DNA from: Acrocarpospora macrocephala
GTDB lineage: Bacteria; Actinomycetota; Actinomycetes; Streptosporangiales; Streptosporangiaceae
NCBI RefSeq assembly: GCF_009687865.1
Contig: NZ_BLAE01000030.1
Location: 62,001 to 126,000, forward strand
Reading direction: 5' to 3'
Length of the DNA stretch: 64,000 bases
Position 1 is the first letter of the stretch; every line of letters begins with the position of its first letter. Under the pieces are notes generated by a model. That model was given only the letters and a program-made list of their open reading frames with translations. It made no database searches and was not told the DNA's origin. This document shows, in pieces, positions 28,463 through 47,213 of this stretch. A program made the translations under genes and the position numbers.

Positions 28463-28489
28463 GGATCCTATCGCCCTTATTATGGATCC
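28463..28489. promoter_or_regulatory. GntR-type paired operator A (amine oxidase operon)
   Basis: Two GGATCC boxes (28463-28468 and 28484-28489), starts exactly 21 bp apart, in the divergent region between the amine oxidase gene and the GntR gene. Flanks TTGGGATCCTA and TATGGATCCAGA match the boxes at the other loci. Confidence 0.8.
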
Positions 28490-28589
28490 AGATAGTCATC
28501 GTGGGACCGAACAAGGTCGCTCAAGTTGCCACCGCGTTCGCGATCGCGGAATGATTCGCTTGCCAGCGTCGACCCAACCTCGCGAAATT

Positions 28590-28595
28590 GGATCC
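28590..28595. promoter_or_regulatory. GntR-type single operator B (upstream of the GntR gene)
   Basis: AAATTGGATCCATCG contains the full-strength half motif TTGGATCCA, 66 bp before the GTG start of the GntR gene. No second box is found 21 bp away on either side, so this may be a weaker autoregulatory site. Confidence 0.6.
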
Positions 28596-28660
28596 ATCGT
28601 TGGGACGCGAATCGATCGCTGTCGTGCCCCGTCCCACCCGCAGGTGAAAGGTCTCCTTCC

Positions 28661-29374
28661 GTGGACTCCGACGCGACTTCCCTGGACCGAAGCGCCCTGG
28701 TCGACGAGACGGCCAGCGCGATCCGGGCCCGCATCATGTCGGGAGAGATCCCGATCGGCGCCCAGCTCAGGCAGGCGGAGCTGGCCGCGCAGCTGGGCAT
28801 CAGCCGCACCCCGATCCGGGAGGCGCTCCGCCAGCTCCAGGCCGGCGGGCTCATCGAGGTGCTGCCCCGCCGGGGGGCCGTGGTCCGCGTGCCCTCCCCC
28901 TGGGAGGTGCGGGAGGCGTACGAGGTGCGCGCGGAGCTGGAGGGCCTGGCCTGCGAGCGGGCGGTCCGCCGGGTGACCAGGACGCTGCTCGCCGAGCTCC
29001 GCGGGACCAACGACGTGCTCCGCGCCAACGAGCGCCCGCCGGCCCCGCCCGGGCCGGGGGCGCCGGTGTCGCCCACCACGATCGCCAACGACCGCTTCCA
29101 CACCCTGATCCACGAGATGGCCGGGAACGAGCGGCTGGCCAGGACCATCCGGGACATCAACGAAGCCTTCCCGCGGAACGTCTCGGCCCTCGTGCTCCAG
29201 GACGACCCGCGCCACCGGGCGGACAACCTGGCCGAACACGAGCGGATCGTCGCCGCGCTCGAAGCCGAGGACGCCAAGCTGGCCCGCCGCGAGATGCGCG
29301 ACCACGTGCTGGCCGCCGGGGAGCAGCTCGCCCGCTGGTACGAGCGCAGGACGGCGACGGTGTTCCGCGGCTGA
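28661..29374 (+). CDS. GntR family regulator, FadR/FCD subfamily
   Basis: Regulator of 237 residues. The winged helix is LVDETASAIRARIMSGEIPIG to LAAQLGISRTPIREALRQLQAGGLIEVLPRRG (residues ~12-70). The all-helical FCD ligand domain follows, with the metal-binding pattern Asp (NDRFHTLIHEMAG), His (HTLIHE) and AEHERIVAALE, DHV. GTG 28661 is chosen because the HTH begins soon after and GAAAGG lies upstream. It sits in the middle of the regulon and is divergent from the amine oxidase. It is the best candidate for binding the 21-bp-phased GGATCC pairs; this needs direct test. Confidence 0.9.
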   Translation: MDSDATSLDRSALVDETASAIRARIMSGEIPIGAQLRQAELAAQLGISRTPIREALRQLQAGGLIEVLPRRGAVVRVPSPWEVREAYEVRAELEGLACERAVRRVTRTLLAELRGTNDVLRANERPPAPPGPGAPVSPTTIANDRFHTLIHEMAGNERLARTIRDINEAFPRNVSALVLQDDPRHRADNLAEHERIVAALEAEDAKLARREMRDHVLAAGEQLARWYERRTATVFRG

Positions 29375-29407
29375 CCAGGCCGTGCGGCCGCGGCGCACCG
29401 GCATCGG

Positions 29408-31795
29408 TCACCGCTCCCGGCGCAGCATCCGCGCGGGATCGAGGAAGTCCAGGTCAGGCCGGGGCACCCGGTACGCGAGGTCGGCCAGCGCCGCCCCGAT
29501 GGCCGGGCCGAACTTGAACCCGTGCCCGGAGCAGGCCGCCGCGACCAGCACCTGCGGGGTCTCCGGCAGCGGGCCGACCGCGAACCGGTTGCCCGGCGCC
29601 ATCGTGTACCGGCAGGCCAGGTCCGCCTCGACGGCGCCGTCGGCGGTGGGCAGGAAACGGGCGGCCAGCGCCCGCAGCGTGGCCCGCTCCGTCTCGGTCA
29701 CCGGGCCGGGAACGGTAGCCGGGTCGTCGTCGGGGCCCAGGTCCAGGCCGATCTTGACCGCGCGGCCGCCGATGGCCGGGATGCCGTACAGCAGGCCGAC
29801 GTCCGGGACGTCCACGGAGAAGCTGCCCAGGGCGGGCGGCGCGAGCGTGGAGGTGACCGACGACCCCACGTGGATGTTGACGATCCGGATCACGCGCAGC
29901 ACGTCCGCGAACGCCGGGATCAGCGACCCGGTCCACGGTCCGGCGCAGACCACCAGGCGGGCGGCCCGCACGGGGCCGTGCGGGGTGCGCACCACCACGC
30001 CGTCGCCGTCCGGGGCCCAGTCCAGCACGGGGGTCCCGTCGTGCCGCCGCACGCCGTGCCCGCGGCCGAGTTCGGCCAGGGCCGCCAGCGCGCCCGAGGC
30101 GTCGATCACCCCCGCGTCGGGGTCGTGCACCGCGACGTACTCCTCCCCCAGCGCGAGACCGGGGAAGATCTCGGCCGCTCGCGCGCCGTCGACCAGGGTG
30201 CAGCCCGGCCCGCGCAGCCCGCCCGCTCCCCCGCCCGCCGGCCGGGCGTAGAGCCCGCCGGTACGCGTGACCAGGGCGCGCCCGGCCTCCGCCTCCAGCG
30301 CCGCCCAGCCCAGGTAGGCCCGGTCGACCAGGTCGTCCCAGACCGGCGACGGGTAGGCCCGGCGGATCATCCTGGTCGGCCCGTGTGAGGAGCCGCGCCC
30401 GTGCCCGGCCGCGAACTGCTCCAGGTGGAGGACACGATCGCCGCGCGCCGCGAGCTGCCAGGCGGCGGACGAACCGTGCACCCCCGCGCCGATCACGATC
30501 GTGTCCACGTGCTCGGACAGCAGGGCGGGCGCGGATACCGGCCGCTCACCCGGCAGCGGCGCTCCGGCTCTCCTGGGGGACACCCGGGGAGACAGCGCGT
30601 CGACCAGGGCGGCGATGTCGTCGGAGTCGTTGTAGACGTGCACCGACGCCCGGACCACCCCCGGCAGGCCACGGCGGCCCAGGTCCCACTGGCCGTGCGC
30701 GGCCGGGACCGAGACCACGTGCAGCCCGGCGACGCGGAGCGCGCGGGCCGTCCTGGCCGGCGTCTCGCCGTCGCGTACGAAGGTCACGATGCCGCCGCCG
30801 GCCGCGGGCGGGTCGACGACCCGGACGCCGGGGACGGCGGCGAGCGCGGCGCGCAGCTCCGCGCCGAGGGCGGCGATGTGCCGGTGGGTCGCGTCGGCCC
30901 CGGTCGCGTGGAGTTCTTCGAGCGCCGCCGTGAGGCCGAGGCGGAGGGCGTGCGAGTACTCCCAGGTCTCGAACCGGCGCGCGCCGGGGACCAGCCCGTA
31001 CTCGTCGTCGGCCGTCCAGCTGGCGCCCCGCACGTCGGGCGCGGGCGGCCGGAGCTCCGCGCCGAGCACCGGGTCGAGCCAGAGCAGCCCGGTGCCGCGC
31101 GGCCCGCGGAGGAACTTGCGGCCGGTGCCGACGAGCAGCGCGCACCCGATCTCGGTGACGTCCACCGGAAGCTGGCCGAGCGACTGGGTGGCGTCGAGCA
31201 GGTAGGGCACGCCGGCGGCGCGGGCGAGCTCGCCGATCGCCGCCGCGGGCTCGATCAGCCCGGACGACGTCGGCACGTGGGCGGCGGTGACCAGGGCGGC
31301 GGGCGTGCGCAGGGCGGCCCGCAGCGCGCCGAGATCCACCGCGCCGGTCTCGTCGGCGCCGATCACCTCGACCACGACCCCGTACCTGCGGCGCAGCTCG
31401 AACAGGTGCAGGGCCGAGCTGACGTAGGTCGACGAGGTCGCCACCACGCGGTCGCCAGGACCGAGGCGCAGCCCGTCGACGGCGCGGTGCCAGGCCACCG
31501 TGGCGCTCTCGGTGAAGGCCACGTCCTCGGCGCGGCCGCCGATGAGCCGCGCGGCCAGCCCGTACGCCTGCTCGGCCCGCGGGCGGACCGCCTCGGCGGC
31601 CTCGTAGCCGCCGATCCGCGCCTCCAGCCGGAGATGGTCGACGACGGTCTCCAGGACGGCCGCGCTGGGCAGCGCCGCCCCGGCGGCGTTGAGATGGCGG
31701 GCGTGCCCGGTCCCGGGGGTCGCGGCCCGGGCGGCGGCGACCAGCGAGCCGGTGGCCGCCGCGACCGGAGCCGCCCCGTCGAGTTGCGTCGTCAC
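29408..31795 (-). CDS. fusion of class V PLP aminotransferase and FAD-dependent amine oxidase (sarcosine-oxidase-like)
   Basis: One uninterrupted frame of 795 residues joins two enzymes. Residues ~1-405 are a class V aminotransferase (isopenicillin-N epimerase/cysteine desulfurase family) with LDATQSLGQLPVD and the PLP lysine in GTGRKFLRGPRG (~228). Residues ~425-790 are a DAO-type flavoprotein: VIGAGVHGSSAAWQLA at ~430, covalent-flavin family GSSHGPTRMIRRAY at ~460, and C-terminal CSGHGFKFGPAIG containing the Cys that holds FAD in monomeric sarcosine/N-methyltryptophan oxidases. No credible RBS plus start occurs at the junction. The GTG start overlaps the aldehyde dehydrogenase stop (GTGA). 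A channelled oxidation and PLP step on an amino compound is inferred. Confidence 0.85.
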   Translation of the reverse strand: MTTQLDGAAPVAAATGSLVAAARAATPGTGHARHLNAAGAALPSAAVLETVVDHLRLEARIGGYEAAEAVRPRAEQAYGLAARLIGGRAEDVAFTESATVAWHRAVDGLRLGPGDRVVATSSTYVSSALHLFELRRRYGVVVEVIGADETGAVDLGALRAALRTPAALVTAAHVPTSSGLIEPAAAIGELARAAGVPYLLDATQSLGQLPVDVTEIGCALLVGTGRKFLRGPRGTGLLWLDPVLGAELRPPAPDVRGASWTADDEYGLVPGARRFETWEYSHALRLGLTAALEELHATGADATHRHIAALGAELRAALAAVPGVRVVDPPAAGGGIVTFVRDGETPARTARALRVAGLHVVSVPAAHGQWDLGRRGLPGVVRASVHVYNDSDDIAALVDALSPRVSPRRAGAPLPGERPVSAPALLSEHVDTIVIGAGVHGSSAAWQLAARGDRVLHLEQFAAGHGRGSSHGPTRMIRRAYPSPVWDDLVDRAYLGWAALEAEAGRALVTRTGGLYARPAGGGAGGLRGPGCTLVDGARAAEIFPGLALGEEYVAVHDPDAGVIDASGALAALAELGRGHGVRRHDGTPVLDWAPDGDGVVVRTPHGPVRAARLVVCAGPWTGSLIPAFADVLRVIRIVNIHVGSSVTSTLAPPALGSFSVDVPDVGLLYGIPAIGGRAVKIGLDLGPDDDPATVPGPVTETERATLRALAARFLPTADGAVEADLACRYTMAPGNRFAVGPLPETPQVLVAAACSGHGFKFGPAIGAALADLAYRVPRPDLDFLDPARMLRRER

Positions 31796-33267
31796 AGCGC
31801 CACCACGACGCTCTTGCGCTCGCAGAAGCCGTGCAGCGCCTCGTCGCCCAGGTCCCGGCCGAGCCCGGAGTCCCGCACCCCGCCGAACGGCAGGGCGGGG
31901 TCGAAGATGTTGTAGGTGTTGATCCACACCGTCCCGACGTGCAGTTCCCTGGCCATCCGGTGCGCCCGCGCGACGTCGCGGGTCCAGACCCCGGCGGCGA
32001 GGCCGTAGTCGGAGTCGTTGGCGATGGCGACCGCGTCGGCCTCGTCGGCGAACGGGATGACCCCGACCACCGGGCCGAAGATCTCCTCCCGGGCGATCCG
32101 CATGTCGTTGCGCACCCCGGTGAAGAGGGTGGGTTCCACGAAGAATCCGGGCCGGTCGGGCACGCCGCCCCCGTAGGCCAGAGTGGCGCCCTCAGCCACC
32201 CCCGCCTCGATGTAGGACAGCACCCGGCCGCGCTGCTCCTCCGACACCAGCGGGCCGACCGTGATCCCGCCGGCCAGCCCGTCGCCCACCGGCACCTTGG
32301 CGACGGCGGCGGCCAGCCGCTCGTGCATCTCGCCGAGGATCGACTCCTGCACCAGCAACCGGCTCCCGGCCGTGCACATCTGCCCCGAGTGCCCGAAGGA
32401 CGCCCGCATCGCGGTGACCACCGCCGCGTCCAGGTCGGCGTCGGCGAACACGATGTTCGGGCTCTTGCCGCCGAGTTCCAGGGTCAGCCGGGTGATGGAC
32501 GGCGCCGCCGCGGCCATCACCAGCCGCCCGACCTCGGTCGACCCGGTGAAGGACACCTTGGCCACGCCGGGGTGGGCGGCGAGCGCGGCACCCGCCTCGC
32601 CGTCGCCGGTGAGCACGTTGAGCACCCCGTCGGGCAGCCCCGCCTCGGCGCAGACAGCGGCGAGCCTGAGCATGGTGAGCGGCGTCTGCTCGGCGGGCTT
32701 CACCACGACCGGGCAGCCCGCGGCCAGGGCCGGGGCCAGCTTGAAGCAGGCGGTCATGATCGGGAAGTTCCACGGCAGGATCAGCGCGGCCACCCCGACC
32801 GGTTCCAGCACCGTGTACGCGTGGTGCGGGGCGCCGTTGCCGTCGATCGGGATCACCGCCCCGGTCAGCCGCCCGGGGGCGCCCGCGAAGTGCCGGAAGG
32901 TCCGCGCGCCCGCCGCGACGTCGGCCCGGGACCGCTCGATCGGCTTGCCGTTGTCCCGGGTCTCCAGCACCGCGAGTTCCTCGGCGGCGGCCTCGATCAG
33001 CTCGGCCACCCGGTGCAGCACGCGGGTGCGCTCCAGCGGCGGCAGACCGCGCCAGCGCGCGTCGGCGTGCGCCTGGGCCGCCGCGGCGACCGCCGCGTCG
33101 ACGTCGGCGGCGGTCGCCTGGGCGACCCGGCTGAGCAGGGCGCCGGACGCGGGATCGACGACGTCGATCCGGTCCCGGTCGCCCGGGGGAATCCACACCC
33201 CGCCGACGAGGAACGGCTCCTCGTCGCGGAGCGGGACCAACCTGCCGTCGGCTGCGGTCGTGCTCAT
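31792..33267 (-). CDS. NAD(P)-dependent aldehyde dehydrogenase
   Basis: Oxidises an aldehyde, such as that produced by the amine oxidase, to a carboxylate; 491 residues. Conserved features: ILPWNFPIM (~155), KPAEQTPLT (~180), GSTEVGR (~235), the catalytic Glu in LELGGKSPNIV (~257), Cys in GQMCTAGSR (~292) and EEIFGPVVGVI (~390). I start at ATG 33267 (GGGGG upstream). The in-frame ATG at 33309 would translate through the paired operator C. It leads an operon with the PLP-FAD fusion gene. Confidence 0.93.
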   Translation of the reverse strand: MSTTAADGRLVPLRDEEPFLVGGVWIPPGDRDRIDVVDPASGALLSRVAQATAADVDAAVAAAAQAHADARWRGLPPLERTRVLHRVAELIEAAAEELAVLETRDNGKPIERSRADVAAGARTFRHFAGAPGRLTGAVIPIDGNGAPHHAYTVLEPVGVAALILPWNFPIMTACFKLAPALAAGCPVVVKPAEQTPLTMLRLAAVCAEAGLPDGVLNVLTGDGEAGAALAAHPGVAKVSFTGSTEVGRLVMAAAAPSITRLTLELGGKSPNIVFADADLDAAVVTAMRASFGHSGQMCTAGSRLLVQESILGEMHERLAAAVAKVPVGDGLAGGITVGPLVSEEQRGRVLSYIEAGVAEGATLAYGGGVPDRPGFFVEPTLFTGVRNDMRIAREEIFGPVVGVIPFADEADAVAIANDSDYGLAAGVWTRDVARAHRMARELHVGTVWINTYNIFDPALPFGGVRDSGLGRDLGDEALHGFCERKSVVVAL

Positions 33268-33293
33268 GTACGTCGTGCCCCCAATGCCGAAAG

Positions 33294-33320
33294 GGATCCT
33301 AGTTTTCATCGCTTGGATCC
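33294..33320. promoter_or_regulatory. GntR-type paired operator C (aldehyde dehydrogenase operon)
   Basis: GGATCC at 33294-33299 and TTGGATCCAATAATA with GGATCC at 33315-33320, 21 bp apart. The extended half TTGGATCCAATAAT is identical to that at operator G. Confidence 0.8.
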
Positions 33321-33378
33321 AATAATACGATTTGATCGTGTTTTTGTGCCAAGGGGGTCCTTTGATGACCCACCACGG

Positions 33379-34398
33379 TTACGGCCGGTTCAACAGGCGG
33401 CGCGGGTTCTCGATGAGGATGCGTTCGACGACCTTCGGGTCCCCGCCCGCCAGCCGGGTGATCCCCGGGCCGATCCGCCGGAACAGGTGGTCGTAGCCGA
33501 ACCCGCCGTTGTGCTTGAGGTTGGCCTGCGCCCACACGTCGGCCCCGATGACCAGCCGGTCCGCGAAACCCTCGGAGAGCAGCCAGGCCACCATCTCGAA
33601 CCGTTCCGCGTCGGTGGGGTTGCGCTGGGCGGGGTCGCCGTACAGGAAGTCCGAGCCGAAGGTGTCGTAGGCGAGCGTCGCCCCGGCCTGCGCGACCTCC
33701 CGGTGGTAGCCGGGGTCGAAGTACTCGTCGAGGTGGCCGATGACCACCCGCGACGGGTCCATCCCCTCCTCGACCAGCGCCTCCAGCACCGGGATGGCGG
33801 GTCTGCCGCGGAACGAGAGGTGGACGTAGACGGCGGCGCCGGTCTCCGCGCCGGCCCGGCCGGCCGCGCGGAGCACCTTCCACTCGCCGTCGGTCACCGG
33901 CCAGCTCGTGCCGATCTCACCGAGCAGCGCCGGGCGGATGCCGGTGCCGCCGATGCCGTGCCGCAGCTCGTCCAGGAGCATCTCGGTGACGCCGTCCACA
34001 CCGGCGGCGCGCACCCGGGCGGGGTGGGTCTGCTCCACGTAGAACCCGCCGCCCACGCAGACGTGCACGCCGCTGCGGCGGGAGATGTCCGGCAGTTCGG
34101 CGAGCCGCCGCCCCATGCCCTCCAAAGTCAGCTCGACGACGGCGCTCGCGCCCGCCGCCCGCGCGTCCGCCAGCTCCCGCACCGCCACGTCCGGATCGTG
34201 CAGCACCAGGTTCTCCGGGATGGACAAGGCGTTCCACCGCAGGTAGCCGAGGAGTTCCGGGCCGATCGGCACCCCGGGCGGGGGTTCCTCGGCGCTCGGC
34301 CTGCTCCACACCCGCAGGTCGCTGAGCAGGTGCTCGTGCATCGAGGTCGGCCCGAGCTCGGCGGGCTCGATCGGCCCGAGAACGGTGTGAATGGGCAT
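33379..34398 (-). CDS. phosphotriesterase-family metal hydrolase 1
   Basis: Amidohydrolase-superfamily barrel of 339 residues in the phosphotriesterase/lactonase group. Ligands are intact: HxH in SMHEHLL (~20), Glu in LLGEIGTS (~150), His in VYVHLSF (~180), His in VIGHLDEY (~210) and Asp in VIGADVWA (~275). Such proteins hydrolyse lactones, amides or phosphoesters. ATG 34398 has GGGAG upstream and sits 10 bp after the YtcJ-like amidohydrolase gene. It is one of three homologues in this region. Confidence 0.86.
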   Translation of the reverse strand: MPIHTVLGPIEPAELGPTSMHEHLLSDLRVWSRPSAEEPPPGVPIGPELLGYLRWNALSIPENLVLHDPDVAVRELADARAAGASAVVELTLEGMGRRLAELPDISRRSGVHVCVGGGFYVEQTHPARVRAAGVDGVTEMLLDELRHGIGGTGIRPALLGEIGTSWPVTDGEWKVLRAAGRAGAETGAAVYVHLSFRGRPAIPVLEALVEEGMDPSRVVIGHLDEYFDPGYHREVAQAGATLAYDTFGSDFLYGDPAQRNPTDAERFEMVAWLLSEGFADRLVIGADVWAQANLKHNGGFGYDHLFRRIGPGITRLAGGDPKVVERILIENPRRLLNRP

Positions 34399-34408
34399 GT
34401 CTCTCCCG

Positions 34409-35998
34409 TCATCCGGCGTATACGGTCTGGCCGCCGACAACGGTCCTGAGCACCTGGATGTCGCCGGCCCGCTCGTCCTCGGTCTCCACCGGATCGGCGT
34501 CGAGCTCCACCCAGTCGGCGAGCGCGCCCGGCGCGAGCCACCCGCGTTCCCCGTCGGCGAAGCAGTACCTGGCGGCGTCCACGGTGTACATGCGGAGCGC
34601 CTCCTCGGCGGTGATCGCCTGCTCGGGCCCGAGCGGGGCGTCGAGGCCGCGGACCCGCCTGGTCCTGGCCTGCCACATGCCGAACAGCGGCGACATCGGG
34701 AAGTCCGGGCCGTCGGAGCCGCCCGCCACCGTCACCCCGGCGTCGAGCCAGTCCCGCAGCGGCGCCGTGCCGGCGGCCGGTTCCCCGAACCGGGCGGCGA
34801 TCCCGGACGCCACCCGCCACTGCATGGACGGCTGGGTGGAGAGCAGCACGCCGAGCCGCCCGGCCAGCGCCATGCTCTCCGCCGACGGCCAGAGGTAGCA
34901 GTGCATGATCGAGAACCGCAGGTCGCGGATGGGCCACTCCGCGTCCGCCCGCTCGAACGCCGCCAGGGCGACCCGGACCGCCTCGTCCCCGACGGCGTGC
35001 ACCGCCATCGACCACCCCTCTCGGGCGCAGAACCGGACGAGTTCCTCGAAGGTCTCCGACCCGCAGGTCTGGTTGCCGTGGTATCCGTCGGTGCCCGGCC
35101 AGGGCCGGGAGAGCAGCGCCGTGCCGAAGCCGCCGGTGCCGTCCAGGTAGACCTTGAGCGGCCCCAGCTTGAACAGCTCGTCGCCGAACCCCGTCCGCAC
35201 CCCGAGCCCGCCGAGCCCGCGCAGGAACCGCCCGGGCGGCACGTCGGTGTCGGCCAGCGGCATGCCCATGGTCCGCAGGGTGAGCCGTCCGGTCCGCCAG
35301 GCGTCCTGGTAGACGGCCATCTCGTGGGGGAACAGGCCGGGCTCGCTCGCCCCGGTGACGCCCAGCGAGTGCAGGTGCCGCTGCGCCTCGTCCAGGGCGG
35401 CCGCCAGTTCCGCCGCCGAGGGCGGCGGGATCAGCGAGAAGACCAGGTCCGCGGCCGGGCGCTCGACCAGGACGCCGGTCGGCTCGCCGTCCGGCGTCCG
35501 CTCGATCCGCCCGCCGGGCGGATCGGGGGTGGCGCGGCCGATCCCGGCGCGGCGCATCGCCTCGCTGTTCACGATCGCGTCGTGGGTGCGCCGGTCCAGG
35601 TAGAGGGCGACCCCCGGGGAGACCGGGTCCAGGTCGGCCGCGGTGGGCAGCCGGCCCTCGGCGAGATCCTCCTCGTGGAAGTGGGCCCCCACCACGACCC
35701 AGTCGTGGCCGGGGTTGGCCGCGAGCCAGTCCCGGATCCGGTCGACCACCTCGGCCACCGACCCCGCCTCCGAGATGGTCAGCCGCCGGCGTTCGAGTCC
35801 GGCGGTGAGCACATGGACGTGGGAGTCGATGAAGCCGGGGAGCACGGGCCCGGCCGCCCGGTGGACGGGGACGTGCGCGCCCGCCAGGGCGCGCACGTCG
35901 GCCAGGTCGCCCGTGGCGGCGATCCGGTCGCCGACCACGAGCATGGCCTCGGCCAGCGGCCGCGCGGGATCCATGGTCCGGATGCGCCCGGCGACCAC
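34409..35998 (-). CDS. YtcJ-like amidohydrolase
   Basis: Metal-dependent amidohydrolase family 3 enzyme, ~529 residues. Motifs: FIDSHVHVL (~45), KVYLDGTGG (~265), MAVHAVGDEAV (~305), IMHCYLW (~340) and the metal Asp in VAGGSDGPDFP (~410). The family includes N-substituted formamide deformylase (NfdA), which fits its neighbours. The start is uncertain: GTG 35998 avoids a long overlap with the upstream gene, while TTG 36034 or GTG 36067 would add 12-23 residues. The stub at 43.6 kb shares its N-terminal (VAGxxxTxDPARPxAxAM) and C-terminal (VLRTxVGGxTVY) sequences. Confidence 0.83.
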   Translation of the reverse strand: MVAGRIRTMDPARPLAEAMLVVGDRIAATGDLADVRALAGAHVPVHRAAGPVLPGFIDSHVHVLTAGLERRRLTISEAGSVAEVVDRIRDWLAANPGHDWVVVGAHFHEEDLAEGRLPTAADLDPVSPGVALYLDRRTHDAIVNSEAMRRAGIGRATPDPPGGRIERTPDGEPTGVLVERPAADLVFSLIPPPSAAELAAALDEAQRHLHSLGVTGASEPGLFPHEMAVYQDAWRTGRLTLRTMGMPLADTDVPPGRFLRGLGGLGVRTGFGDELFKLGPLKVYLDGTGGFGTALLSRPWPGTDGYHGNQTCGSETFEELVRFCAREGWSMAVHAVGDEAVRVALAAFERADAEWPIRDLRFSIMHCYLWPSAESMALAGRLGVLLSTQPSMQWRVASGIAARFGEPAAGTAPLRDWLDAGVTVAGGSDGPDFPMSPLFGMWQARTRRVRGLDAPLGPEQAITAEEALRMYTVDAARYCFADGERGWLAPGALADWVELDADPVETEDERAGDIQVLRTVVGGQTVYAG

Positions 35999-37216: not shown

Positions 37217-37243
37217 GGATTCACTTTGAGGTGTCTTGGATCC
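37217..37243. promoter_or_regulatory. GntR-type paired operator D (binding-protein operon)
   Basis: GTGGATTCAC (box 37217-37222) and TTGGATCCAAT (box 37238-37243), 21 bp apart, 57 bp before the binding-protein start. A further perfect palindrome GGATGCATCC is at 37258-37267. Confidence 0.8.
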
Positions 37244-39889: not shown

Positions 39890-39916
39890 GGATCCTAGCA
39901 AGATGATTTAGGATCC
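39890..39916. promoter_or_regulatory. GntR-type paired operator E (DMFase-like genes / cysteine hydrolase, divergent)
   Basis: TCTGGATCCTAG (box 39890-39895) and TTAGGATCCAGA (box 39911-39916), 21 bp apart, in the 89-bp gap between the divergent small-subunit gene and the isochorismatase-family gene. The outer flanks TCTGGATCCTA/TAGGATCCAGA are themselves mirror images, making the whole element a large palindrome. Confidence 0.85.
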
Positions 39917-40558: not shown

Positions 40559-41811
40559 GGGGCAGGAGGCCGGGCACGCAGGCCGTGCCCCGGCTCGGCC
40601 GCCAGCACGCCCAGCCCGGCCACCGCCAGGGCGGCGGCGGCCACGAACGCCGACCACTCCCCCCACCAGCCGGACAGCACGCCCCCGAGGAACGATCCCC
40701 CGGCCAGGCCGACGGCGATGTACGCGTTGAAGAAGCCGAGCCCGGTGGCACGCAGGCTCGACGGCAGCCGCTCTGTGGCGATCATGGTGAGGGACGGGAA
40801 CAGCGGGGCGAACCCGGCGCCGAGCACCACCGCACCCACGGCCGCCATCGCGAACGACCCCGCCGCCGCGACCACCAGCAGACCCGCGGCCACGCAGCTC
40901 AGCGCCAGCGCCGCCGACCGCCGGGCGCCGATCCGGTCCGGCAGCCCGCCGACCGCCAGCCGGGCCAGCACCACCGAGGCCGCGAAGACGGTGAACACGC
41001 TCGCCCCGCCGAACACGCCGTCCGGCCGGATCCCCCGGGACTCCAGGTGCAGCACCAGGTAGGTGAGCAGCACGCCCTCGGTCGCCCAGACCAGGCCCGC
41101 GACCACCCCGGCCCGCGTCACCGACCGCACCGCGACCCGCCAGCCGGGCGCGCCCGGTACGCCGTCGGTGGGACCCGCCGCGCCACCGGCCAGGTTCTCC
41201 CCCGTCACCACCGCGGTCTCCTCCGGCGGGAACCCGTCCGCCCGGTGGCGGACGACCAGGGCGGCGGCCACGGAACCCAGCTGCAGCGCCCCGCAGACCA
41301 GCCACACCGCGCCGAACCCGGCGAGATGGAAGGTGTTCTCGCCGACCACGGGGCCGAGGGCGAGCCCGATCCACACGCCGAGGCCGAACACCCCCAGCGC
41401 CTGCCCGCGCCGCTCGGGGGCGACGATCGCGAGCACCCAGGCCATCAGCGCCGTCGCGATCACCGAACCGCCGGCGCCGAAGAGCACCCGGCCCGCGGCC
41501 ACGCCGGGGACGGTGGCCGACACGAGCAGGAACAGCACGCCGGCGGAGCCGAGCAGGCCGCTGGCCACCGAGACCACGCGGTAGCCGTACCGGTCGGCCA
41601 GCACGCCGGCGAACGGCTGGACCACGAGCGACGCGATCGGGGAGAGCCCCACCAGCGATCCGACCAGGGCGGGTCCGCCGCCGAGCACCTCCACCACGTA
41701 GCGTGGCAGCACGGGCGCCGTGGTGCTGTACGCGACGTTGCTGAGCGCGGACGAAACGAAGATCAGCCAGAACGCGGGCGTGGCGAAGCGCGGTGCGCCA
41801 CCCCGCCTCAT
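40555..41811 (-). CDS. MFS transporter
   Basis: Twelve-helix major facilitator of 418 residues. The loop 2-3 signature is GVLADRYGYRVV (~70) and the matching loop 8-9 motif is VGGLPDRIGARRSA (~290). The stop codon overlaps that of the convergent cysteine hydrolase gene by 4 bp. It could export a product or toxic intermediate; direction and substrate are unknown. Confidence 0.88.
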   Translation of the reverse strand: MRRGGAPRFATPAFWLIFVSSALSNVAYSTTAPVLPRYVVEVLGGGPALVGSLVGLSPIASLVVQPFAGVLADRYGYRVVSVASGLLGSAGVLFLLVSATVPGVAAGRVLFGAGGSVIATALMAWVLAIVAPERRGQALGVFGLGVWIGLALGPVVGENTFHLAGFGAVWLVCGALQLGSVAAALVVRHRADGFPPEETAVVTGENLAGGAAGPTDGVPGAPGWRVAVRSVTRAGVVAGLVWATEGVLLTYLVLHLESRGIRPDGVFGGASVFTVFAASVVLARLAVGGLPDRIGARRSAALALSCVAAGLLVVAAAGSFAMAAVGAVVLGAGFAPLFPSLTMIATERLPSSLRATGLGFFNAYIAVGLAGGSFLGGVLSGWWGEWSAFVAAAALAVAGLGVLAAEPGHGLRARPPAP

Positions 41812-41944
41812 CCGCGGCGGTCCGGGACCCGATCGGGCTCGTACGCGTTCTCGGAGCCGCGAAGCGCGACGATTGTATCCATGTGTCGATTATCAACACA
41901 TTTTTGAGATGTTCATCCAATTCTGGCGTGATTCTCCGCATACT

Positions 41945-41971
41945 GAATCCATGAGTACGACGATCGGATCC
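41945..41971. promoter_or_regulatory. GntR-type paired operator F (spanning the start of the gamma-glutamyltransferase-like gene)
   Basis: GAATCC (41945-41950) and GGATCC (41966-41971), 21 bp apart. The first box abuts the ATG at 41951 and the second lies in the coding sequence (codons for GSK). Binding here would block RNA polymerase progress or require a start further upstream. Confidence 0.65.
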
Positions 41972-43636
41972 AAAGTCGCCCTCGCAGCCCCACATCGCGC
42001 GGCCGTCGCCGCCGGGCGGCACGCGGTGGCCGCAGGCGGCAACGCGCTCGACGCCGCCCTCGCCGCCGCCACCGCCCTGACCGTCGTCTACCCGCACCAG
42101 TGCGCGCTCGGTGGCGACCTGGTGGCGCTGGTCCGCCGGCCAGGACCGGACGGCCCGGGGACGGCGGCCGGGTCGGCCGCCGGCTCGGGCCCCGGGTCGG
42201 CCATCGTCTCGGCCGTCGTGTCGGCCGGAGCCGCGCCCGCCGCCCTCACCCCGGCCGTCCTCCCCGGCCCCGCCATGCCGCGCCAGGGCCCGCACACCGT
42301 CACCGTCCCCGGTGTCGTCGCCGGCTGGCAGGCGCTGGCGGGCCTCGGCGCCCGGCTCCCCCTGAGCCATCCGCTCCGGTACGCCCAAGGGCTGGCCGAG
42401 CGGGGATCCACCGTCACGGCCGGGCTGCGGCGCGCGCTCGGCAGCCGGGCCGAGGCCGTGCTCGCCGATCCCGGCCTGCGCGCCCTCTTCGCCCCGGACG
42501 GCGACCTGCCGGCAACCGGCACACGGTTCACCCAGCCCGCCCTCGCCCGCACGCTCGCGCACCTCGCCGACGACCCGGCGAGCTTCTACCACGGCGAGAT
42601 CGCCGAACGCCTGGTCGCCGGGCTCCGCGCCGCCGGCGGCCTGCACACCGCGGCCGACTTCGCCGCCCACCACGCGGAGGTCGTCCCCGCACTCGCCACC
42701 CGGCTCGGCCAGGACACCTGGTGGGCCGCCCCGCCCCCGACTGCGGGCCCCCTCCTGCTCGGCGTGGCGGCCGCGGCCTCCGGCGACGCCGCCCGACCCG
42801 ACGCCGCCCGACCCGACGCCGCCCGACCCGACGCCGCCCTGTCCGACGCCGCCCTGTCCGACGCCGCCCTGCTCGACGCCTGCCTGCGGGCCGTCCAGGT
42901 ACGCGTCCGCCACCTCGGCGACCCGCGCACGGCACCGGTGGACATCCCGGCGATCCTGGCCCTCGACCTCCAGTCCCCGAACGGTCAGTCCCCGGACGCT
43001 CCCGGCCCGGCGGCCCCCTGGTCCGAGCCACCCGCCCGAGGGGACACCGTGGCGGTTTCCGCGAGCGACGACTCGGGGCTCTCGGTGGTGCTGATCCAGA
43101 GCGTCTTCCAGACCTTCGGCGCGGGCCTGCTCGAACCCGGGACCGGCATCGTCCTGCACAACCGCGGCGCGGCCTTCAGCCTCGACCCGGCCAGCCCGGC
43201 CCGGCTGACCCCCGGCTCCCGGCCGCCGCACACGCTCTGCCCGCTGATCGTCGACTCCCCTGCCGGGGTGCTCGCGATCGGCTGCCAGGGCGGGCGCGCC
43301 CAGCCGTGGATCCTGGCCCAGATCGCCCCCGTCCTGCTCGCCGACCCGGAACAGGATCCCGCCGATGTGCTCGCCCGGCCGCGCTGGGTCGTCGGCGACG
43401 TCGACCTCGGGCACGACCGCACCACCCTGGTCGCCGAACCCGGCCTCGCCGCCGTACTCGCCGCGGCGCGATCCAGGGACCTGCCGGTCGACGAACGCGC
43501 CGGCCCGGAAGACATCGCCGGGCACGTCCAGCTCACCCGCCGCCGGGTGGCGCCCGACGGCACGACCCGGCTCGACGCCGCGAGCGACCCCCGTGCCGAC
43601 GGCGCGGGCGAGCTGCTCGGGGAGGACCGCCGATGA
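41951..43636 (+). CDS. gamma-glutamyltransferase-like Ntn hydrolase
   Basis: 561-residue member of the gamma-glutamyltranspeptidase family, which hydrolyses or transfers gamma-glutamyl amides after self-cleavage. N-terminal ALAAPHRAAVAAGRHAVAAGGNALDAALAAA and GGDLVALV are family-typical. The small subunit would start at the Thr in ARGDTVAVSASDD (~360), with the later QGGRAQPWILAQ. The sequence is divergent: the TTHxSV motif is not conserved, and no signal peptide is seen, so a cytosolic role is likely. It could release the product of the gamma-glutamylamide ligase. Residues ~279-308 are a 15-bp tandem repeat. Confidence 0.78.
   Translation: MSTTIGSKVALAAPHRAAVAAGRHAVAAGGNALDAALAAATALTVVYPHQCALGGDLVALVRRPGPDGPGTAAGSAAGSGPGSAIVSAVVSAGAAPAALTPAVLPGPAMPRQGPHTVTVPGVVAGWQALAGLGARLPLSHPLRYAQGLAERGSTVTAGLRRALGSRAEAVLADPGLRALFAPDGDLPATGTRFTQPALARTLAHLADDPASFYHGEIAERLVAGLRAAGGLHTAADFAAHHAEVVPALATRLGQDTWWAAPPPTAGPLLLGVAAAASGDAARPDAARPDAARPDAALSDAALSDAALLDACLRAVQVRVRHLGDPRTAPVDIPAILALDLQSPNGQSPDAPGPAAPWSEPPARGDTVAVSASDDSGLSVVLIQSVFQTFGAGLLEPGTGIVLHNRGAAFSLDPASPARLTPGSRPPHTLCPLIVDSPAGVLAIGCQGGRAQPWILAQIAPVLLADPEQDPADVLARPRWVVGDVDLGHDRTTLVAEPGLAAVLAAARSRDLPVDERAGPEDIAGHVQLTRRRVAPDGTTRLDAASDPRADGAGELLGEDRR
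42785..42874 (+). repeat. six 15-bp tandem repeats within the gamma-glutamyltransferase-like gene
   Basis: Six in-frame units encode DAARP (three), DAALS (two) and DAALL. The copies are nearly identical at DNA level, so the array is probably recent and could vary in number among strains. It lies just before the presumed autoprocessing region. Confidence 0.85.
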
Positions 43637-44033: not shown

Positions 44034-44034
44034 C

Positions 44035-45474
44035 ATGACCACTTCCTCCGACGCGCTCCACCGCTGGCCGGCCCGCGCCCTCGCGGCGGCCATCAGGGAG
44101 CGGCGCGTCTCCGCCGTGGAGGTGATGCGCGCCCACCTCGACCGCATCGACCAGCTCAACGATTCACTCAACGCGATCGTCTCGCCGCTGCCACGGGGGA
44201 CGGCGCTGGCGATGGCCGAAGAGGCGGACCGCGCGGTCGCCCGTGGGGACGAGCTGGGCCCGCTGCACGGGCTGCCCACCGCGGTGAAGGACCTCGTCGA
44301 CGTGGCCGGCCTGCCGACCGTCCATGGCTCCGCCGTCCACGCGGACGCCCCGCCCGCGGAACACGACAGCGTCCTCGCCGAACGCCTCCGCGGCGCCGGG
44401 GCGCTCATCATCGGCAAGACCAACACCCCTGAGATGGGCCTCGGCACCCTGACCTTCAACCCGGTGTTCGGCATCACCCGCAACCCGTGGGACCTCACCC
44501 GGCACGCCGGGGGCAGCAGCGGCGGGGCCGCGGCGGCCGTGGCCAGCGGGATGCTGCCGATCGCGGACGGCTCCGACAGCGGCGGCAGCATCCGCTACCC
44601 GGCGGCGTTCTGCAACGTGGTCGGCCTGCGCCCGACCCCGGGGGCGGTGCCGAGCGGCCGTCCCGGCAACGCCTGGAGCCCGCACGGGGTGCTCGGCCCG
44701 ATGGCCCGCGACTCGGCCGACGCGGCCCTGCTGCTGAGCGGGATCGCGGGGCACGACCCCCGGTGGCCGCTGTCGTGGATCCAGGATCCGTACGGCCTGG
44801 CCCGGCTGGACGAGCTCGACCTGCGCGGGCTCCGGCTGGCCTGGAGCGCCGACGTCGGCGGTCTGCCGATCGACCCGGAGATCCGCGCCGCGCACGCGCG
44901 GGCCCGAGCCGCCCTCGAGTCCGCCGGCGCGGCCGTCGTGGACCGCGAACCGGACTTCTCCCACGCCGACCGGGCCTGGGAGACGATCGAGATGTTCGAG
45001 TTCTTCTCCTACGGCCACGAGCGGGTCGACGCGCTGTCCGAGGCCGGGAACTACCGCGAGGACTTCCTGCGCAACGTGGAGCAGGGCCGCGCGACCAGCG
45101 CGCGCGCTCTCGCCGAGGCGTTCGCCCGCCGTACCGACCTGTTCCGGGACACCGCCCGCCTGCTGGCGGACGTGGACGCGCTGGTGCTGCCCGCGACCCC
45201 GGTGCCCCCTCCCCCCGCGGAGCTGGAGTGGGTGCCCGAGATCGACGGGGTGCGCTTCGACCGCTACTTCCGCTGGCAGCTGGTCGCGAACCGGATCACG
45301 GCGACCGGCCATCCCGCCCTCGTCACCCCGGGCGGCTTCACCGAGGGAGGGCTGCCCGTGGGCCTCCAGGTGGTCGGCCCGTCGCGCGGCGACGCCCGGC
45401 TCCTGGCGATGGGCGCGGCTATCGAGACGGCGCTCGGCCTCGTCGGCAGGGCGCCGGCCGCTATTCCCGGCTGA
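44035..45474 (+). CDS. amidase (amidase-signature family)
   Basis: Ser-cisSer-Lys amidase of 479 residues. The Lys is in TAVKDLVDVAG (~84), the cis-Ser in HAGGSSGGAAAAVASGMLP (~160) and the nucleophile in ADGSDSGGSIRYPAAFCNVVGLRP (~185). It lacks any GatB/GatC neighbours, so a catabolic amide hydrolase is more likely than a tRNA amidotransferase. It starts 1 bp after the amidohydrolase remnant and is presumably transcribed from operator F. Confidence 0.9.
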   Translation: MTTSSDALHRWPARALAAAIRERRVSAVEVMRAHLDRIDQLNDSLNAIVSPLPRGTALAMAEEADRAVARGDELGPLHGLPTAVKDLVDVAGLPTVHGSAVHADAPPAEHDSVLAERLRGAGALIIGKTNTPEMGLGTLTFNPVFGITRNPWDLTRHAGGSSGGAAAAVASGMLPIADGSDSGGSIRYPAAFCNVVGLRPTPGAVPSGRPGNAWSPHGVLGPMARDSADAALLLSGIAGHDPRWPLSWIQDPYGLARLDELDLRGLRLAWSADVGGLPIDPEIRAAHARARAALESAGAAVVDREPDFSHADRAWETIEMFEFFSYGHERVDALSEAGNYREDFLRNVEQGRATSARALAEAFARRTDLFRDTARLLADVDALVLPATPVPPPPAELEWVPEIDGVRFDRYFRWQLVANRITATGHPALVTPGGFTEGGLPVGLQVVGPSRGDARLLAMGAAIETALGLVGRAPAAIPG

Positions 45475-45484
45475 ACCCGCGAAG

Positions 45485-46513
45485 TCAGCCGCCGAACAGC
45501 GCCCGCCGGGGATTGTCCACGGTGAACTTGCGGATCAGGCCGGGGTCGAGGCCGCGTGCCACGGCCAGCGGGAAGAAGTCGGTGAACAGGAAGGCGTAGC
45601 CGGGGCCGCCCTTGATGTGCAGGTGCGAGCGGGCGCAGACGTCCTGGGAGAGGAGGATCCGGTCCTCGTGTCCGGCGTCGACCAGCTGGAGCAGGTAGGA
45701 GATGCGCCGCTCCAGCTCCGGCATGACCAGGTGCCCGCCGATCCGGCAGGTCATCAGGCAGTCGTACTGGACGAAGACGCCCCGGCGGGCGAGTTCGAGC
45801 GAATAGCGGATGTGCTTGACCGTGTCGGCGTGCCCGATGACGATCCGCTCCGGCGGCACGCCCTCCTCGGTCAGGATGTCGAGCTGGGCCAGGCCGACGG
45901 GGTGGGTCGGCGCGTGCGTGCTGATCATGACGCCGGTCTCCCGCGCGGCCCGGCCCGCGGCGCGGAAGGAGCGCTCCTCGGCCGTGGTGACGTAGGCGTG
46001 GTCGGCGGCGATCTCGCCCAGGAAGCCCGCGCGCACCCCGGTGCCCGGGATCTCGTCGACGAGGTCGCGGATCAGGAAGTCCGCGAGCCGGTTGGTCGGG
46101 GTGCTCTCGAACCACTGTCTGTGCAGGTAGCTGTCGTGGTAGTGGCCGGTGCCGAGCACCACGGTGAGCCCGACGGTCTCGGCCATCGCCTTGGTGGCCA
46201 GCACGTTGGCGGGCGACCGCGAGCCGGTGACCGGGTCCTGGTGCGGGCTGATCGCCGGGCCGTCCTCCTCGCCCCAGAAGAGCGGCGCGGCGAGTTCGCT
46301 CAGCTCGCCGTTGGTGACGTCGAGGATGGTGGTCCCGCCGGCGTCGGCGTATCGGCGCAGTTCGGCTTCCTGCTCCTCCCAGACGTTGAGCAGGCCGTCC
46401 CTGGGGGCGGTCCGCAGCATGTTGATGAAGACGTGCTCGTGCGGCAGGGTCACGCCGAGTTCGGCGGGGGCGATCGGCCCCGTCACGCTGTTGACGCTGG
46501 TGAGCGCAGCCAT
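45485..46513 (-). CDS. phosphotriesterase-family metal hydrolase 2
   Basis: Barrel hydrolase of 342 residues related to the proteins at 33.4 and 50.1 kb. All ligands are present: HxH in LPHEHVF (~25), Glu in FLGEIAADH (~160), His in ISTHAPTHP (~193), His in VIGHADTV (~222) and Asp in LLSQDVCARS (~280). The ATG has GGAGG 6 bases upstream. It is convergent with the amidase and divergent from the RidA gene, with paired operator G between. Confidence 0.87.
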   Translation of the reverse strand: MAALTSVNSVTGPIAPAELGVTLPHEHVFINMLRTAPRDGLLNVWEEQEAELRRYADAGGTTILDVTNGELSELAAPLFWGEEDGPAISPHQDPVTGSRSPANVLATKAMAETVGLTVVLGTGHYHDSYLHRQWFESTPTNRLADFLIRDLVDEIPGTGVRAGFLGEIAADHAYVTTAEERSFRAAGRAARETGVMISTHAPTHPVGLAQLDILTEEGVPPERIVIGHADTVKHIRYSLELARRGVFVQYDCLMTCRIGGHLVMPELERRISYLLQLVDAGHEDRILLSQDVCARSHLHIKGGPGYAFLFTDFFPLAVARGLDPGLIRKFTVDNPRRALFGG

Positions 46514-46580
46514 GCGATACCTCCGGTCGGGCTGAGAATGGGGTGGCGCGGGGGCTTGGCTGCCAAAGAGTCCGAATTAT

Positions 46581-46607
46581 GGATTCCCAATCGCCAACTT
46601 GGGATCC
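46581..46607. promoter_or_regulatory. GntR-type paired operator G (phosphotriesterase 2 / RidA, divergent)
   Basis: TATGGATTCCCAAT (box 46581-46586) and TTGGGATCCAATAATA (box 46602-46607), 21 bp apart, in the gap between the divergent genes. Confidence 0.82.
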
Positions 46608-46643
46608 AATAATAGAGGTTCCGTCCACTTTCGGAGGAGTGCT

Positions 46644-47141
46644 GTGACCGATTCGACCCCAGAGCAGCGGGCGGCCGAGCTCGGGCTCGCCATCCCCGAC
46701 TACGCCGACCCGCCGTACGGCCGGCGCTACGGCAACGTGAAGGCGTTCCACCGGTCCGGGCGCCTGGTCCTGCTCGGCGGGATCACCGCGGAGTCACGGG
46801 ACGGCGAACGCCTCCATCCGGGCGTGCTCGGCGCCGACCTGACCGTCGAGCAGGGCTACGCCGCCGCCCGGCAGGCGGCCGTCAACTGCCTCGGCATGGT
46901 CAGGTACGCCATCGGCTCCCTGGACGAGGTGACCGCCATCCCCCGGGTCCAGGTGTTCGTCGCCGCCGTGCCGGAGTTCGAGGAGCACCACCTGGTCGCG
47001 GCCGGCATGTCCGATCTGTTCCTGGAGGTGTTCGGCCCCGAGATCGGCACGACCGCCCGTGCCACCATGGGCGTGACCGGCCTCTCCCGGCGCAACTCCG
47101 TCGAACTGTGGCCGACCTTCGAGAGCCGGGACGCGGTGTGA
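46644..47141 (+). CDS. RidA/YjgF-family protein
   Basis: 165-residue member of the Rid family, which hydrolyses reactive enamine/imine intermediates or acts in amine catabolism. It is longer than classic RidA (~130) at the N-terminus. Conserved elements are RSGRLVLLGGITAESRDG (~35-50), NCLGMVRYAIGSLDEVTAIPRVQVFV (~85-110) and an atypical C-terminal GVTGLSRRNSVELWPTFE, where canonical RidA has an RxxLP arginine-glutamate site. GTG 46644 is chosen for GGAGGA at proper spacing. Its placement beside amine oxidases fits imine detoxification. Confidence 0.85.
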   Translation: MTDSTPEQRAAELGLAIPDYADPPYGRRYGNVKAFHRSGRLVLLGGITAESRDGERLHPGVLGADLTVEQGYAAARQAAVNCLGMVRYAIGSLDEVTAIPRVQVFVAAVPEFEEHHLVAAGMSDLFLEVFGPEIGTTARATMGVTGLSRRNSVELWPTFESRDAV

Positions 47142-47186
47142 CGAGGCCGAGCTGTAACACGGCCGATACGCACGCCCAGTAGCTTC

Positions 47187-47213
47187 GGATCCGACATCCA
47201 TGTTTTTGGATCC
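47187..47213. promoter_or_regulatory. GntR-type paired operator H (PotBCA operon)
   Basis: TTCGGATCCGAC (box 47187-47192) and TTTGGATCCCCAATCAT (box 47208-47213), 21 bp apart, 34 bp before the leader-like ORF and permease genes. Confidence 0.82.

What the first reader, a model, noticed from the sequence alone, without database searches (positions are those of the whole stretch)
28463..47213. A dispersed regulon marked by GGATCC box pairs at an invariant 21-bp period
Seven intergenic or start-codon regions (28463/28484, 33294/33315, 37217/37238, 39890/39911, 41945/41966, 46581/46602, 47187/47208) each hold two GGATCC or GGATTC boxes whose start positions differ by exactly 21 bp, two helical turns. 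The extended half is TTGGATCCAATAAT. All seven control C-N catabolic genes, and a GntR/FCD gene with one further box lies among them. The constant phasing points to two regulator dimers side by side on one face of DNA. I know of no described GntR operator of this exact layout.
Basis: partly seen in the sequence, partly recalled or inferred. Interest (0 to 1): 0.87.

Follow-up and report, generated by a model that had tools for sequence, protein, structure and literature searches.

The report
Paired operators of a GntR regulon
A soil actinobacterium marks the promoters of a nitrogen-compound breakdown island with pairs of the same short DNA word exactly two helix turns apart, and the same paired marks sit near the same regulator gene in many other actinobacteria, so this looks like a real, apparently undescribed genetic switch.

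Summary
All seven box pairs stand at exactly 21 bp, and no other spacing recurs in the window. In the own 12.1-Mb genome the layout clusters in this island, plus one second locus. The nearby GntR/FCD gene (28661-29374) has relatives in 74 named actinobacterial loci. 73 of 74 hold at least one 21-bp pair outside called genes; the next best spacing, 22, reaches 15. In the window plus 72 of these loci, 135 intergenic pairs are at 21 bp, 16 at 22, 4 at 20, none at 18-19, 23-26 or 30-33. A scan by pattern alone agrees: 11 of 11 places examined in gntR+ genomes are intergenic, 8 of 28 in gntR- ones. Each box is a full palindrome (wTTGGATCCAAw), so a pair offers sites for two dimers. Facing other genes, a -10-like hexamer lies between the boxes or in the proximal box in 47 of 118 cases, suggesting repression by promoter occlusion. 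The island (about 23.6-51.1 kb) encodes amine/amide uptake and breakdown. Binding, oligomeric state and inducer are not shown. Verdict: new variant of a known kind.

The parts
28463..28489 (.). box pair 1 (GGATCC/GGATCC), between the amine-oxidase gene (-) and gntR (+); TAGGAT overlaps the box next to the amine-oxidase start, predicted leaderless ATG at 28458
33294..33320 (.). box pair 2, upstream of the ALDH and aminotransferase-DAO genes (-)
37217..37243 (.). box pair 3 (GGATTC/GGATCC), upstream of the substrate-binding protein / amidohydrolase / PTE-family genes (-)
39890..39916 (.). box pair 4, between the dimethylformamidase-like genes (-) and an isochorismatase-family amidase (+); TAGGAT at the proximal box in both directions
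41945..41971 (.). box pair 5 (GAATCC/GGATCC), between an MFS transporter (-) and a gamma-glutamyltransferase-family gene (+)
46581..46607 (.). box pair 6 (GGATTC/GGATCC), between a PTE-family gene (-) and a YjgF-family gene (+)
47187..47213 (.). box pair 7, upstream of the ABC permease/permease/ATPase/PTE-family genes (+)
28590..28595 (.). single box (attGGATCCatc) 71 bp before the gntR start, without a recognisable partner at +/-21; possible separate autoregulatory site
   Evidence: single boxes at similar distance in several related loci
28661..29374 (+). GntR/FCD regulator (237 aa), proposed to bind the pairs
   Evidence: Pfam GntR 3.2e-18 and FCD 3.8e-23; relatives in 74 loci; model pLDDT 86
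26491..28458 (-). copper amine oxidase (first gene under pair 1)
25154..26479 (-). Rieske oxygenase with LigXa_C domain
23638..25161 (-). glutamine-synthetase family, best NCBIfam hit gamma-glutamylputrescine synthetase (below its cut-off)
29408..31795 (-). fused class-V aminotransferase-like + DAO flavoprotein
31792..33267 (-). aldehyde dehydrogenase
33379..34398 (-). phosphotriesterase-family (PTE) hydrolase
34409..35998 (-). amidohydrolase (Amidohydro_3)
36024..37082 (-). solute-binding protein, weak PotD-like hit
37297..39510 (-). dimethylformamidase large-subunit-like protein (DMFA2_C)
39528..39860 (-). 110-aa protein before DMFA2_C; small subunit by position (inference)
   Evidence: no family hit
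39950..40558 (+). isochorismatase-family amidase
40555..41811 (-). MFS transporter
42026..43636 (+). gamma-glutamyltransferase family
44035..45474 (+). amidase (no box pair of its own in front)
45485..46513 (-). PTE-family hydrolase
46644..47141 (+). YjgF-family protein
47294..51093 (+). polyamine-type ABC permease, permease, ATPase, then a PTE-family hydrolase

Best explanation
Each pair is one double operator for the island's GntR/FCD protein. Each box is a complete two-fold palindrome, wTTGGATCCAAw, that fits one regulator dimer. Two dimers (or one dimer of dimers) sit exactly two helical turns apart on one face of the DNA and together cover the -10 region, and in part the start point, of catabolic promoters, so RNA polymerase is kept off. 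A metabolite of the pathway, perhaps a carboxylate bound at the FCD pocket, would release them and switch on the amine/amide uptake and breakdown island. Shown here by sequence: the pairs, their fixed spacing, their conservation near this regulator in many actinobacteria, their promoter positions, and the palindromic boxes. Inferred: that this protein binds them, that binding is cooperative, that the effect is repression, and that there is an inducer.
For: (1) 73 of 74 named loci carrying a relative of gntR hold at least one 21-bp pair outside called genes, 43 hold two or more, in 31 of 32 genus-or-higher labels that I assigned from the record titles. At the next best spacing, 22, 15 of 74 do; the median over spacings 8-60 is 1. 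(2) Window plus L031-L102: 135 intergenic pairs at 21, 16 at 22, 4 at 20; in called genes 5 at 21. Among all 64 palindromic hexamers GGATCC/21 is 75-fold over its other spacings, the next is 11-fold. (3) A scan by pattern alone: in the order 4 of 5 gntR+ genomes match against 20 of 292 without; in the class, own genome left out, 2 of 2 against 7 of 293. The fifth gntR+ genome of the order, G222, has pairs with GGATAC, GTATCC or GAATCC boxes (L021/L022). Of the places given to, 11 of 11 distinct ones in gntR+ genomes are intergenic (2 of them in this window), against 8 of 28 in gntR- genomes. (4) In 12 gntR+ genomes 37 of 52 exact pairs lie within 60 kb of gntR (hand tally). (5) The box consensus is symmetric. 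(6) On strands facing genes other than gntR a -10-like hexamer lies in the spacer (25 of 118) or overlaps the proximal box (22 of 118), against 1 and 2 of 82 other orientations. (7) By Foldseek E-value the model is closest to the VanR-type repressor Atu1419. (8) Apart from the GntR protein, no regulator was found among the 20 genes scanned in 26.5-51.1 kb.
Against: No binding or expression data. 71 of 118 gene-facing orientations show neither -10 placement, and the offsets were picked after looking at the data. 6 of 74 gntR relatives lack any pair directly upstream within 450 bp. Pairs facing gntR sit at a median of 121.5 bp from its start (values) and show the -10 placement in only 1 of 38, so autoregulation through the pair is uncertain. 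L075 has no 21-bp pair by the criterion used. My own gene calls define 'intergenic'; in L047 and L102 less than half the DNA was called as genes. 15 of 52 exact pairs in gntR+ genomes lie elsewhere.
Confidence: 0.74

Rival explanations
1. The pair is the operator of one preformed tetramer (dimer of dimers), as in Atu1419, rather than of two separate dimers that cooperate on DNA.
For: By E-value the closest folds in the PDB are Atu1419 chains, though their TM-scores (0.56-0.61) are below that of a Brucella GntR structure (0.78); Atu1419 is reported as a tetramer in which each dimer binds a 10-bp palindrome (passages of PMC7797058).
Against: In those passages the DNA-bound palindromes of the Atu1419 tetramer are about 10 nm apart and the operators 190 bp apart, which suits looping and not a 21-bp centre distance (about 7 nm, recalled geometry). 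Some loci show three boxes at 21-bp steps, which suits dimers added in a row.
Confidence: 0.25
2. Activator: the bound pair recruits RNA polymerase instead of blocking it.
For: The pairs facing gntR and some targets lie far upstream; at least one FCD regulator, CitO, is an activator (start of abstract in the listing).
Against: Median pair-centre to start codon over all neighbouring genes is 56.5 bp, and -10-like hexamers lie inside the pair on the target strand in 47 of 118 orientations.
Confidence: 0.12
3. Another regulator, not the GntR protein, binds the pairs, and gntR is only one of its targets.
For: gntR is itself among the genes next to pairs, and no binding was tested.
Against: No other regulator among the scanned island genes; in the pattern-only scan every examined place in gntR+ genomes is intergenic, unlike those in gntR- genomes; the box resembles the palindromic sites reported for FCD/VanR proteins (passages).
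Confidence: 0.1
4. Promoter hexamers (-35/-10) of one sigma factor, not a regulator's sites.
For: Fixed spacing is typical of promoters, and TAGGAT in the proximal box looks like a -10.
Against: Both boxes are palindromic with symmetric flanks; TTGGAT to TAGGAT leaves a 15-bp spacer; in 25 of 118 gene-facing orientations the -10-like hexamer lies between the boxes instead, and 37 of 38 gntR-facing orientations have neither.
Confidence: 0.04
5. Chance or a dispersed repeat.
For: GGATCC boxes are frequent in the window; box density in 28-48 kb is twice that of shuffles.
Against: Shuffles and genome scans; the spacers differ between sites, so this is not a copied repeat.
Confidence: 0.01

Closest known systems
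Atu1419 (VanR-type FCD repressor, Agrobacterium fabrum; PMC7797058, PDB 6za3/6z74)
   Same: Best Foldseek hits by E-value; 10-bp palindromic operator; sites at the -10 or between -10 and -35; regulates catabolic genes (passages).
   Different: Its box is ATGTATACAT; its two palindromes are 190 bp apart and looped by a tetramer. Here the boxes are GGATCC-cored and 21 bp apart.
NanR (Escherichia coli; PMC8012715)
   Same: GntR/FCD repressor with several dimers side by side on a repeated, defined-spacing operator; cooperative (passages).
   Different: Operator is (GGTATA)3 repeats; cooperativity needs a 32-residue N-terminal extension. Here the boxes are palindromes, and few, poorly conserved residues precede the first conserved block.
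FadR-subfamily sites with an extra half-site (Suvorova et al. 2015, PMC4494728)
   Same: Palindromic sites with a further box nearby (section 17 read).
   Different: There it is a weaker half-site 7-12 nt from the site centre, and positions -20 and -21 served as the random control. Here it is a full palindrome centred 21 bp away.
HypR (Streptomyces coelicolor FCD regulator; PMC6608401)
   Same: Actinobacterial FCD repressor of catabolic genes; [quoted passage not shown]
   Different: A 14-nt motif, CTNTGC(A/C)ATGTCAC.

Membership tests
GntR superfamily, FCD (FadR/VanR) subfamily | N-terminal GntR winged helix plus C-terminal FCD domain | tested here: met
   Pfam GntR 3.2e-18 and FCD 3.8e-23, both above cut-off; AlphaFold model pLDDT 86 matching FCD structures
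GntR superfamily, FCD (FadR/VanR) subfamily | conserved histidines of the FCD metal/ligand pocket (role recalled) | tested here: met
   H147, H193 and H215 invariant in 37 aligned sequences and conserved at 1.00 in 75; that they bind metal was not tested
VanR branch (six C-terminal helices; recalled definition) | number of C-terminal helices | tested here: inconclusive
   the model lists seven segments after residue 80, two of them parted by one residue; the nearest structures by E-value are VanR-type
FadR-subfamily operator consensus NyGTNxACNy | GT ... AC half-sites in the palindrome | tested here: not met
   the core is GG-AT-CC; 142 of 188 boxes are GGATCC, 36 are GGATAC/GTATCC with one GT/AC half, 10 are GGATTC/GAATCC
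NanR-type repeat operator | GGTATA repeats and a long N-terminal extension | tested here: not met
   palindromic boxes; short, poorly conserved N-terminus
Atu1419-type looping tetramer | tetramer in solution, distant operators | not testable with these tools
   single-chain model only; spacing differs

The most novel reading that the evidence does not exclude
An undescribed actinobacterial regulator family reads an obligatory double palindrome: two complete GGATCC-cored dimer sites locked at exactly two helical turns and used as one unit that straddles the -10 element, including leaderless promoters where the proximal box is itself part of the -10. This would be a way of reading DNA not described for GntR proteins in the papers I could search, and it would govern a conserved amine/amide catabolic island.
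Probability: 0.6. Interest if true: 0.68.

Novelty: new variant of a known kind. Interest (0 to 1): 0.58.

Why it matters
It gives a motif specific enough to mark a regulon in many genera by sequence alone, and a clean test of how GntR dimers cooperate: the intergenic spacing is nearly all-or-none (135 at 21, 16 at 22, 4 at 20, none at 31-32), which suggests direct contact between neighbouring dimers and not mere helical phasing. It also ties Rieske oxygenases, copper amine oxidases, gamma-glutamyl-amine synthetase-like enzymes and amidases into one apparently co-regulated pathway of unknown substrate.

Tried and rejected
Chance: rejected by shuffles and the genome scan. Copied repeat: rejected, spacers differ. 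Sigma-factor promoter: considered, unlikely. Structured RNA: no Rfam match at gathering threshold in 22-52 kb. Is 21-bp pairing general for FCD proteins with GTATAC boxes? A scan of 197 class genomes gave mixed spacings; in the printed places (a partial list, counted by hand) 16 are at 13, 9 at 23 and 8 at 21, so there is no clear peak. A third box at 21 bp is not general, but occurs in Curtobacterium (boxes GGATCC, GTATCC, GGATAC at L059 18272) and in weaker form in others. Window box 28590 has no partner; box 43886 lies in a duplicated stretch. Literature: nine searches found no paper describing this operator; two of them returned no paper at all, and the 12 listed TTGGATCC papers were judged from the listing only and not opened. 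The pathway substrate could not be settled.

Dropped rows: histograms used the window and L031-L102 only (L019-L030 left out); L019, L020, L029 and L030 were left out; near-identical sequences were removed (145 to 94 pairs; 288 to 200 orientations). In one search ties were resolved in favour of spacing 21; searches have no such preference. One search was given 43 loci; L144 and L146 (pair 4 of the window again) and the matched places without a fetched locus were not given to it.
Full report
What was checked. The seven pairs are present at the stated coordinates with box starts exactly 21 bp apart, and 21 is the only spacing up to 60 bp that recurs among the 65 GGATCC/GGATTC/GAATCC boxes of the window. 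In 500 dinucleotide shuffles of 28-48 kb at most 2 pairs shared any spacing, against 7 in the real sequence; that stretch also has twice as many boxes as the shuffles (34 against a mean of 17). In the own genome (12.1 Mb, 166 contigs) GGATYC-N15-GGATCC has 13 distinct places. Six are in this island, one is the AT-rich C92:17542, and six are elsewhere, mostly with GC-rich spacers. GGATCC-N15-GGATTC has 6 more: the 41945 pair, C92:18005 and four elsewhere. At the background rate of 6 per genome the chance of 6 in 18.75 kb is about 9e-16.

Where the pairs lie. By my gene calls all seven are outside genes and in front of start codons on one or both sides. Reading outward from them, the genes covered run from 23.6 to 51.1 kb: copper amine oxidase, Rieske oxygenase and a glutamine-synthetase-family enzyme; aldehyde dehydrogenase and a fused aminotransferase-like/DAO protein; a solute-binding protein, an amidohydrolase and a PTE-family enzyme; dimethylformamidase-like genes; an isochorismatase-family amidase; an MFS transporter; a gamma-glutamyltransferase-family gene; PTE and YjgF; and a polyamine-type ABC transporter. 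The amidase at 44035 has no pair of its own in front; gntR has pair 1 with its centre 185 bp away and a single box at 71 bp. That neighbouring genes form operons is inferred from order and spacing. The only regulator found among the 20 genes scanned between 26.5 and 51.1 kb is the GntR/FCD protein at 28661-29374.

Conservation. A scan of genome contigs with the GntR protein gave 74 loci (51-98% identity), from Acrocarpospora, Nonomuraea, Actinoplanes, Micromonospora, Streptomyces, Pseudonocardia, Rhodococcus, Kineosporia, Jiangella, Microbacterium, Curtobacterium, Rathayibacter, Conexibacter and others. In these loci exact GGATCC pairs occur 78 times at spacing 21, 11 times at 22 and at most 5 times at any other spacing from 7 to 60. 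Counting variants (GGATAC, GTATCC, GGATTC, GAATCC with at least one GGATCC), in the window plus L031-L102 there are 135 intergenic pairs at 21, 16 at 22 and 4 at 20, and none at 18-19, 23-26 or 30-33; 11 at 42 and 9 at 34 are the next. Within called genes there are 5 at 21. Of the 64 palindromic hexamers, GGATCC at 21 is enriched 75-fold over its other spacings, and the next best hexamer 11-fold. 73 of 74 loci have at least one intergenic 21-bp pair and 43 have two or more; L075 has none. The same count at other spacings gives 15 of 74 at 22, 11 at 42, 9 at 34 and a median of 1. In L047 and L102 less than half the DNA was called as genes, so 'intergenic' means little there. Upstream of gntR itself (450 bp) the best pair is at 21 in 61 of 74, at 22 in 6, at 20 in 1, and none is found in 6; ties in that script favour 21. 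150 of 156 pairs (window plus L019-L102, some loci overlapping) lie outside called genes.

A test that does not start from the GntR protein. A stricter pattern (WGGATCC-N-W-N12-WGGATCC) was run over 297 genomes of the order and 296 of the class, and the same groups were searched for the protein. In the order 4 of 5 gntR+ genomes match against 20 of 292 without gntR (Fisher 1.6e-4; 1.6e-3 without the own genome). In the class, own genome left out, 2 of 2 match against 7 of 293 (8e-4). The missing gntR+ genome, G222, carries pairs with GGATAC, GTATCC or GAATCC boxes around its gntR (L021/L022). Of the places given to, 11 of 11 distinct ones in gntR+ genomes are intergenic, two of them in this window, against 8 of 28 in gntR- genomes; these 8 were not studied further. 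In 12 gntR+ genomes the exact pair occurs 52 times in all (reversed control: 1); 37 of the 52 lie within 60 kb of gntR by my tally, 15 do not.

The motif. From 94 non-redundant pairs each box reads wTTGGATCCAAw, with the flanking T and A at 54-63%. Of 188 boxes 142 are GGATCC, 36 GGATAC/GTATCC and 10 GGATTC/GAATCC; the boxes were selected by these five words, so the core frequencies are conditioned on that. Each box is therefore a complete two-fold site of the size reported for an FCD dimer (10-bp ATGTATACAT for Atu1419; passages of PMC7797058), with GG/CC in place of the family's usual GT/AC (passages of PMC4494728). The GGATAC variants carry one half of each kind. Some loci have three boxes in a row at 21 bp, for example Curtobacterium L059 18272. 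Several Microbacteriaceae have a second, 22-bp pair close to the gntR start.

Promoter geometry. Oriented toward a called gene other than gntR, 118 non-redundant sequences show two arrangements. In 25, TANNNT starts 14 bases from the first base of the distal box, inside the spacer, and 14 of those carry TG for an extended -10. In 22, TAGGAT overlaps the proximal box (TG in 13), and in 14 of these an ATG or GTG stands 30-32 bases from the distal box, as a leaderless transcript would need. Such a start codon also occurs by chance: 9 of 38 gntR-facing and 7 of 44 gene-less orientations have one. The remaining 71 of 118 show neither arrangement. Among 82 control orientations (38 facing gntR, 44 facing no gene) the two counts are 1 and 2 (Fisher 7e-6 and 2e-4). 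The offsets were chosen after inspection, so the P values are optimistic; a spacer-shuffle control on 37 single-target pairs gave 13 observed against a mean of 1.4 (maximum 7 in 5000), with 0 on the opposite strand. In the window, pair 1 toward the amine oxidase, pair 2, and pair 4 in both directions are of the TAGGAT kind; the other six orientations toward genes other than gntR show neither. Most simply, the bound pair covers the -10 region and represses.

The regulator. Pfam finds GntR and FCD domains. In NCBIfam no model reaches its cut-off; the best is phnR_burk. Three histidines (147, 193, 215) are invariant in the aligned sequences. The AlphaFold model (pLDDT 86) is closest by Foldseek E-value to Atu1419, then PmiR and a Brucella GntR structure; by TM-score the Brucella structure (0.78) is ahead of Atu1419 (0.56-0.61). 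The N-terminus before the first conserved block is short and variable, unlike NanR, whose cooperative binding uses a 32-residue extension (passages of PMC8012715).

Targets elsewhere. Genes next to pairs fall into clusters that recur: gntR itself (61 loci), a class-V aminotransferase-like enzyme (32), a ferredoxin-domain reductase (22), copper amine oxidase (17), YjgF (13), a solute-binding protein (10), a Rieske oxygenase (10), aldehyde dehydrogenase (7), cupin (5) and others, among 85 sequences searched, some overlapping. The second own-genome locus, C92, has two pairs 463 bp apart around a cupin gene and in front of a GMC oxidoreductase. The common theme is oxidation, glutamylation or hydrolysis of amines and amides; the actual substrate is unknown to me.

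Literature. Seen: section 17 and passages of PMC4494728; passages of PMC7797058, PMC6608401 and PMC8012715; only listings for the rest. Suvorova et al. report weaker half-sites 7-12 nt from site centres and used positions -20 and -21 as the random control, so a full second palindrome at 21 bp is not what that section describes. Nine searches found no report of this operator; most subscription papers and all preprints are missing from the library, so this is not proof of novelty.

Verdict. It is a new variant of a known kind (FCD-GntR repressor) with an unusually strict double operator, conserved across actinobacteria.

Noticed in passing
window 43514-43686 and 43720-43892: A 173-nt stretch at the 3' end of the gamma-glutamyltransferase-family gene is repeated 206 bp downstream at 98% identity; the second copy lies after the gene's predicted end, partly in a small predicted ORF (43633-43842), before the amidase.
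   Followed up: partly
window 29408-31795: Class-V aminotransferase-like and DAO flavoprotein domains are fused here, but are separate neighbouring genes in Microbacterium L074; gene order suggests the same in other relatives.
   Followed up: partly
G000 contig C92 17542-18031 (L028 9543-10032): Second locus of the regulon in the own genome: two 21-bp pairs around a cupin gene, upstream of a GMC oxidoreductase, with an amidohydrolase further on.
   Followed up: partly
L059 18272, L061 18247, L063 12198, L071 18096, L081 18085: Curtobacterium loci with three boxes in a row at 21-bp steps.
   Followed up: no
L061, L063, L067, L068, L071, L073 about 55-84 bp before gntR: An exact box pair at 22 bp, close to the gntR start, in Curtobacterium and Rathayibacter.
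   Followed up: no
window 53565-54413, 54450-56507, 60290-61309: Beyond the island: a phosphotransferase (APH family), an elongation-factor-G-like protein and a beta-lactamase-family protein by Pfam.
   Followed up: no
G412:C1:538240 and G457:C1:4819936: GTATAC pairs at 21 bp with similar spacers in two genomes of one genus, perhaps a double operator of another FCD regulator.
   Followed up: no
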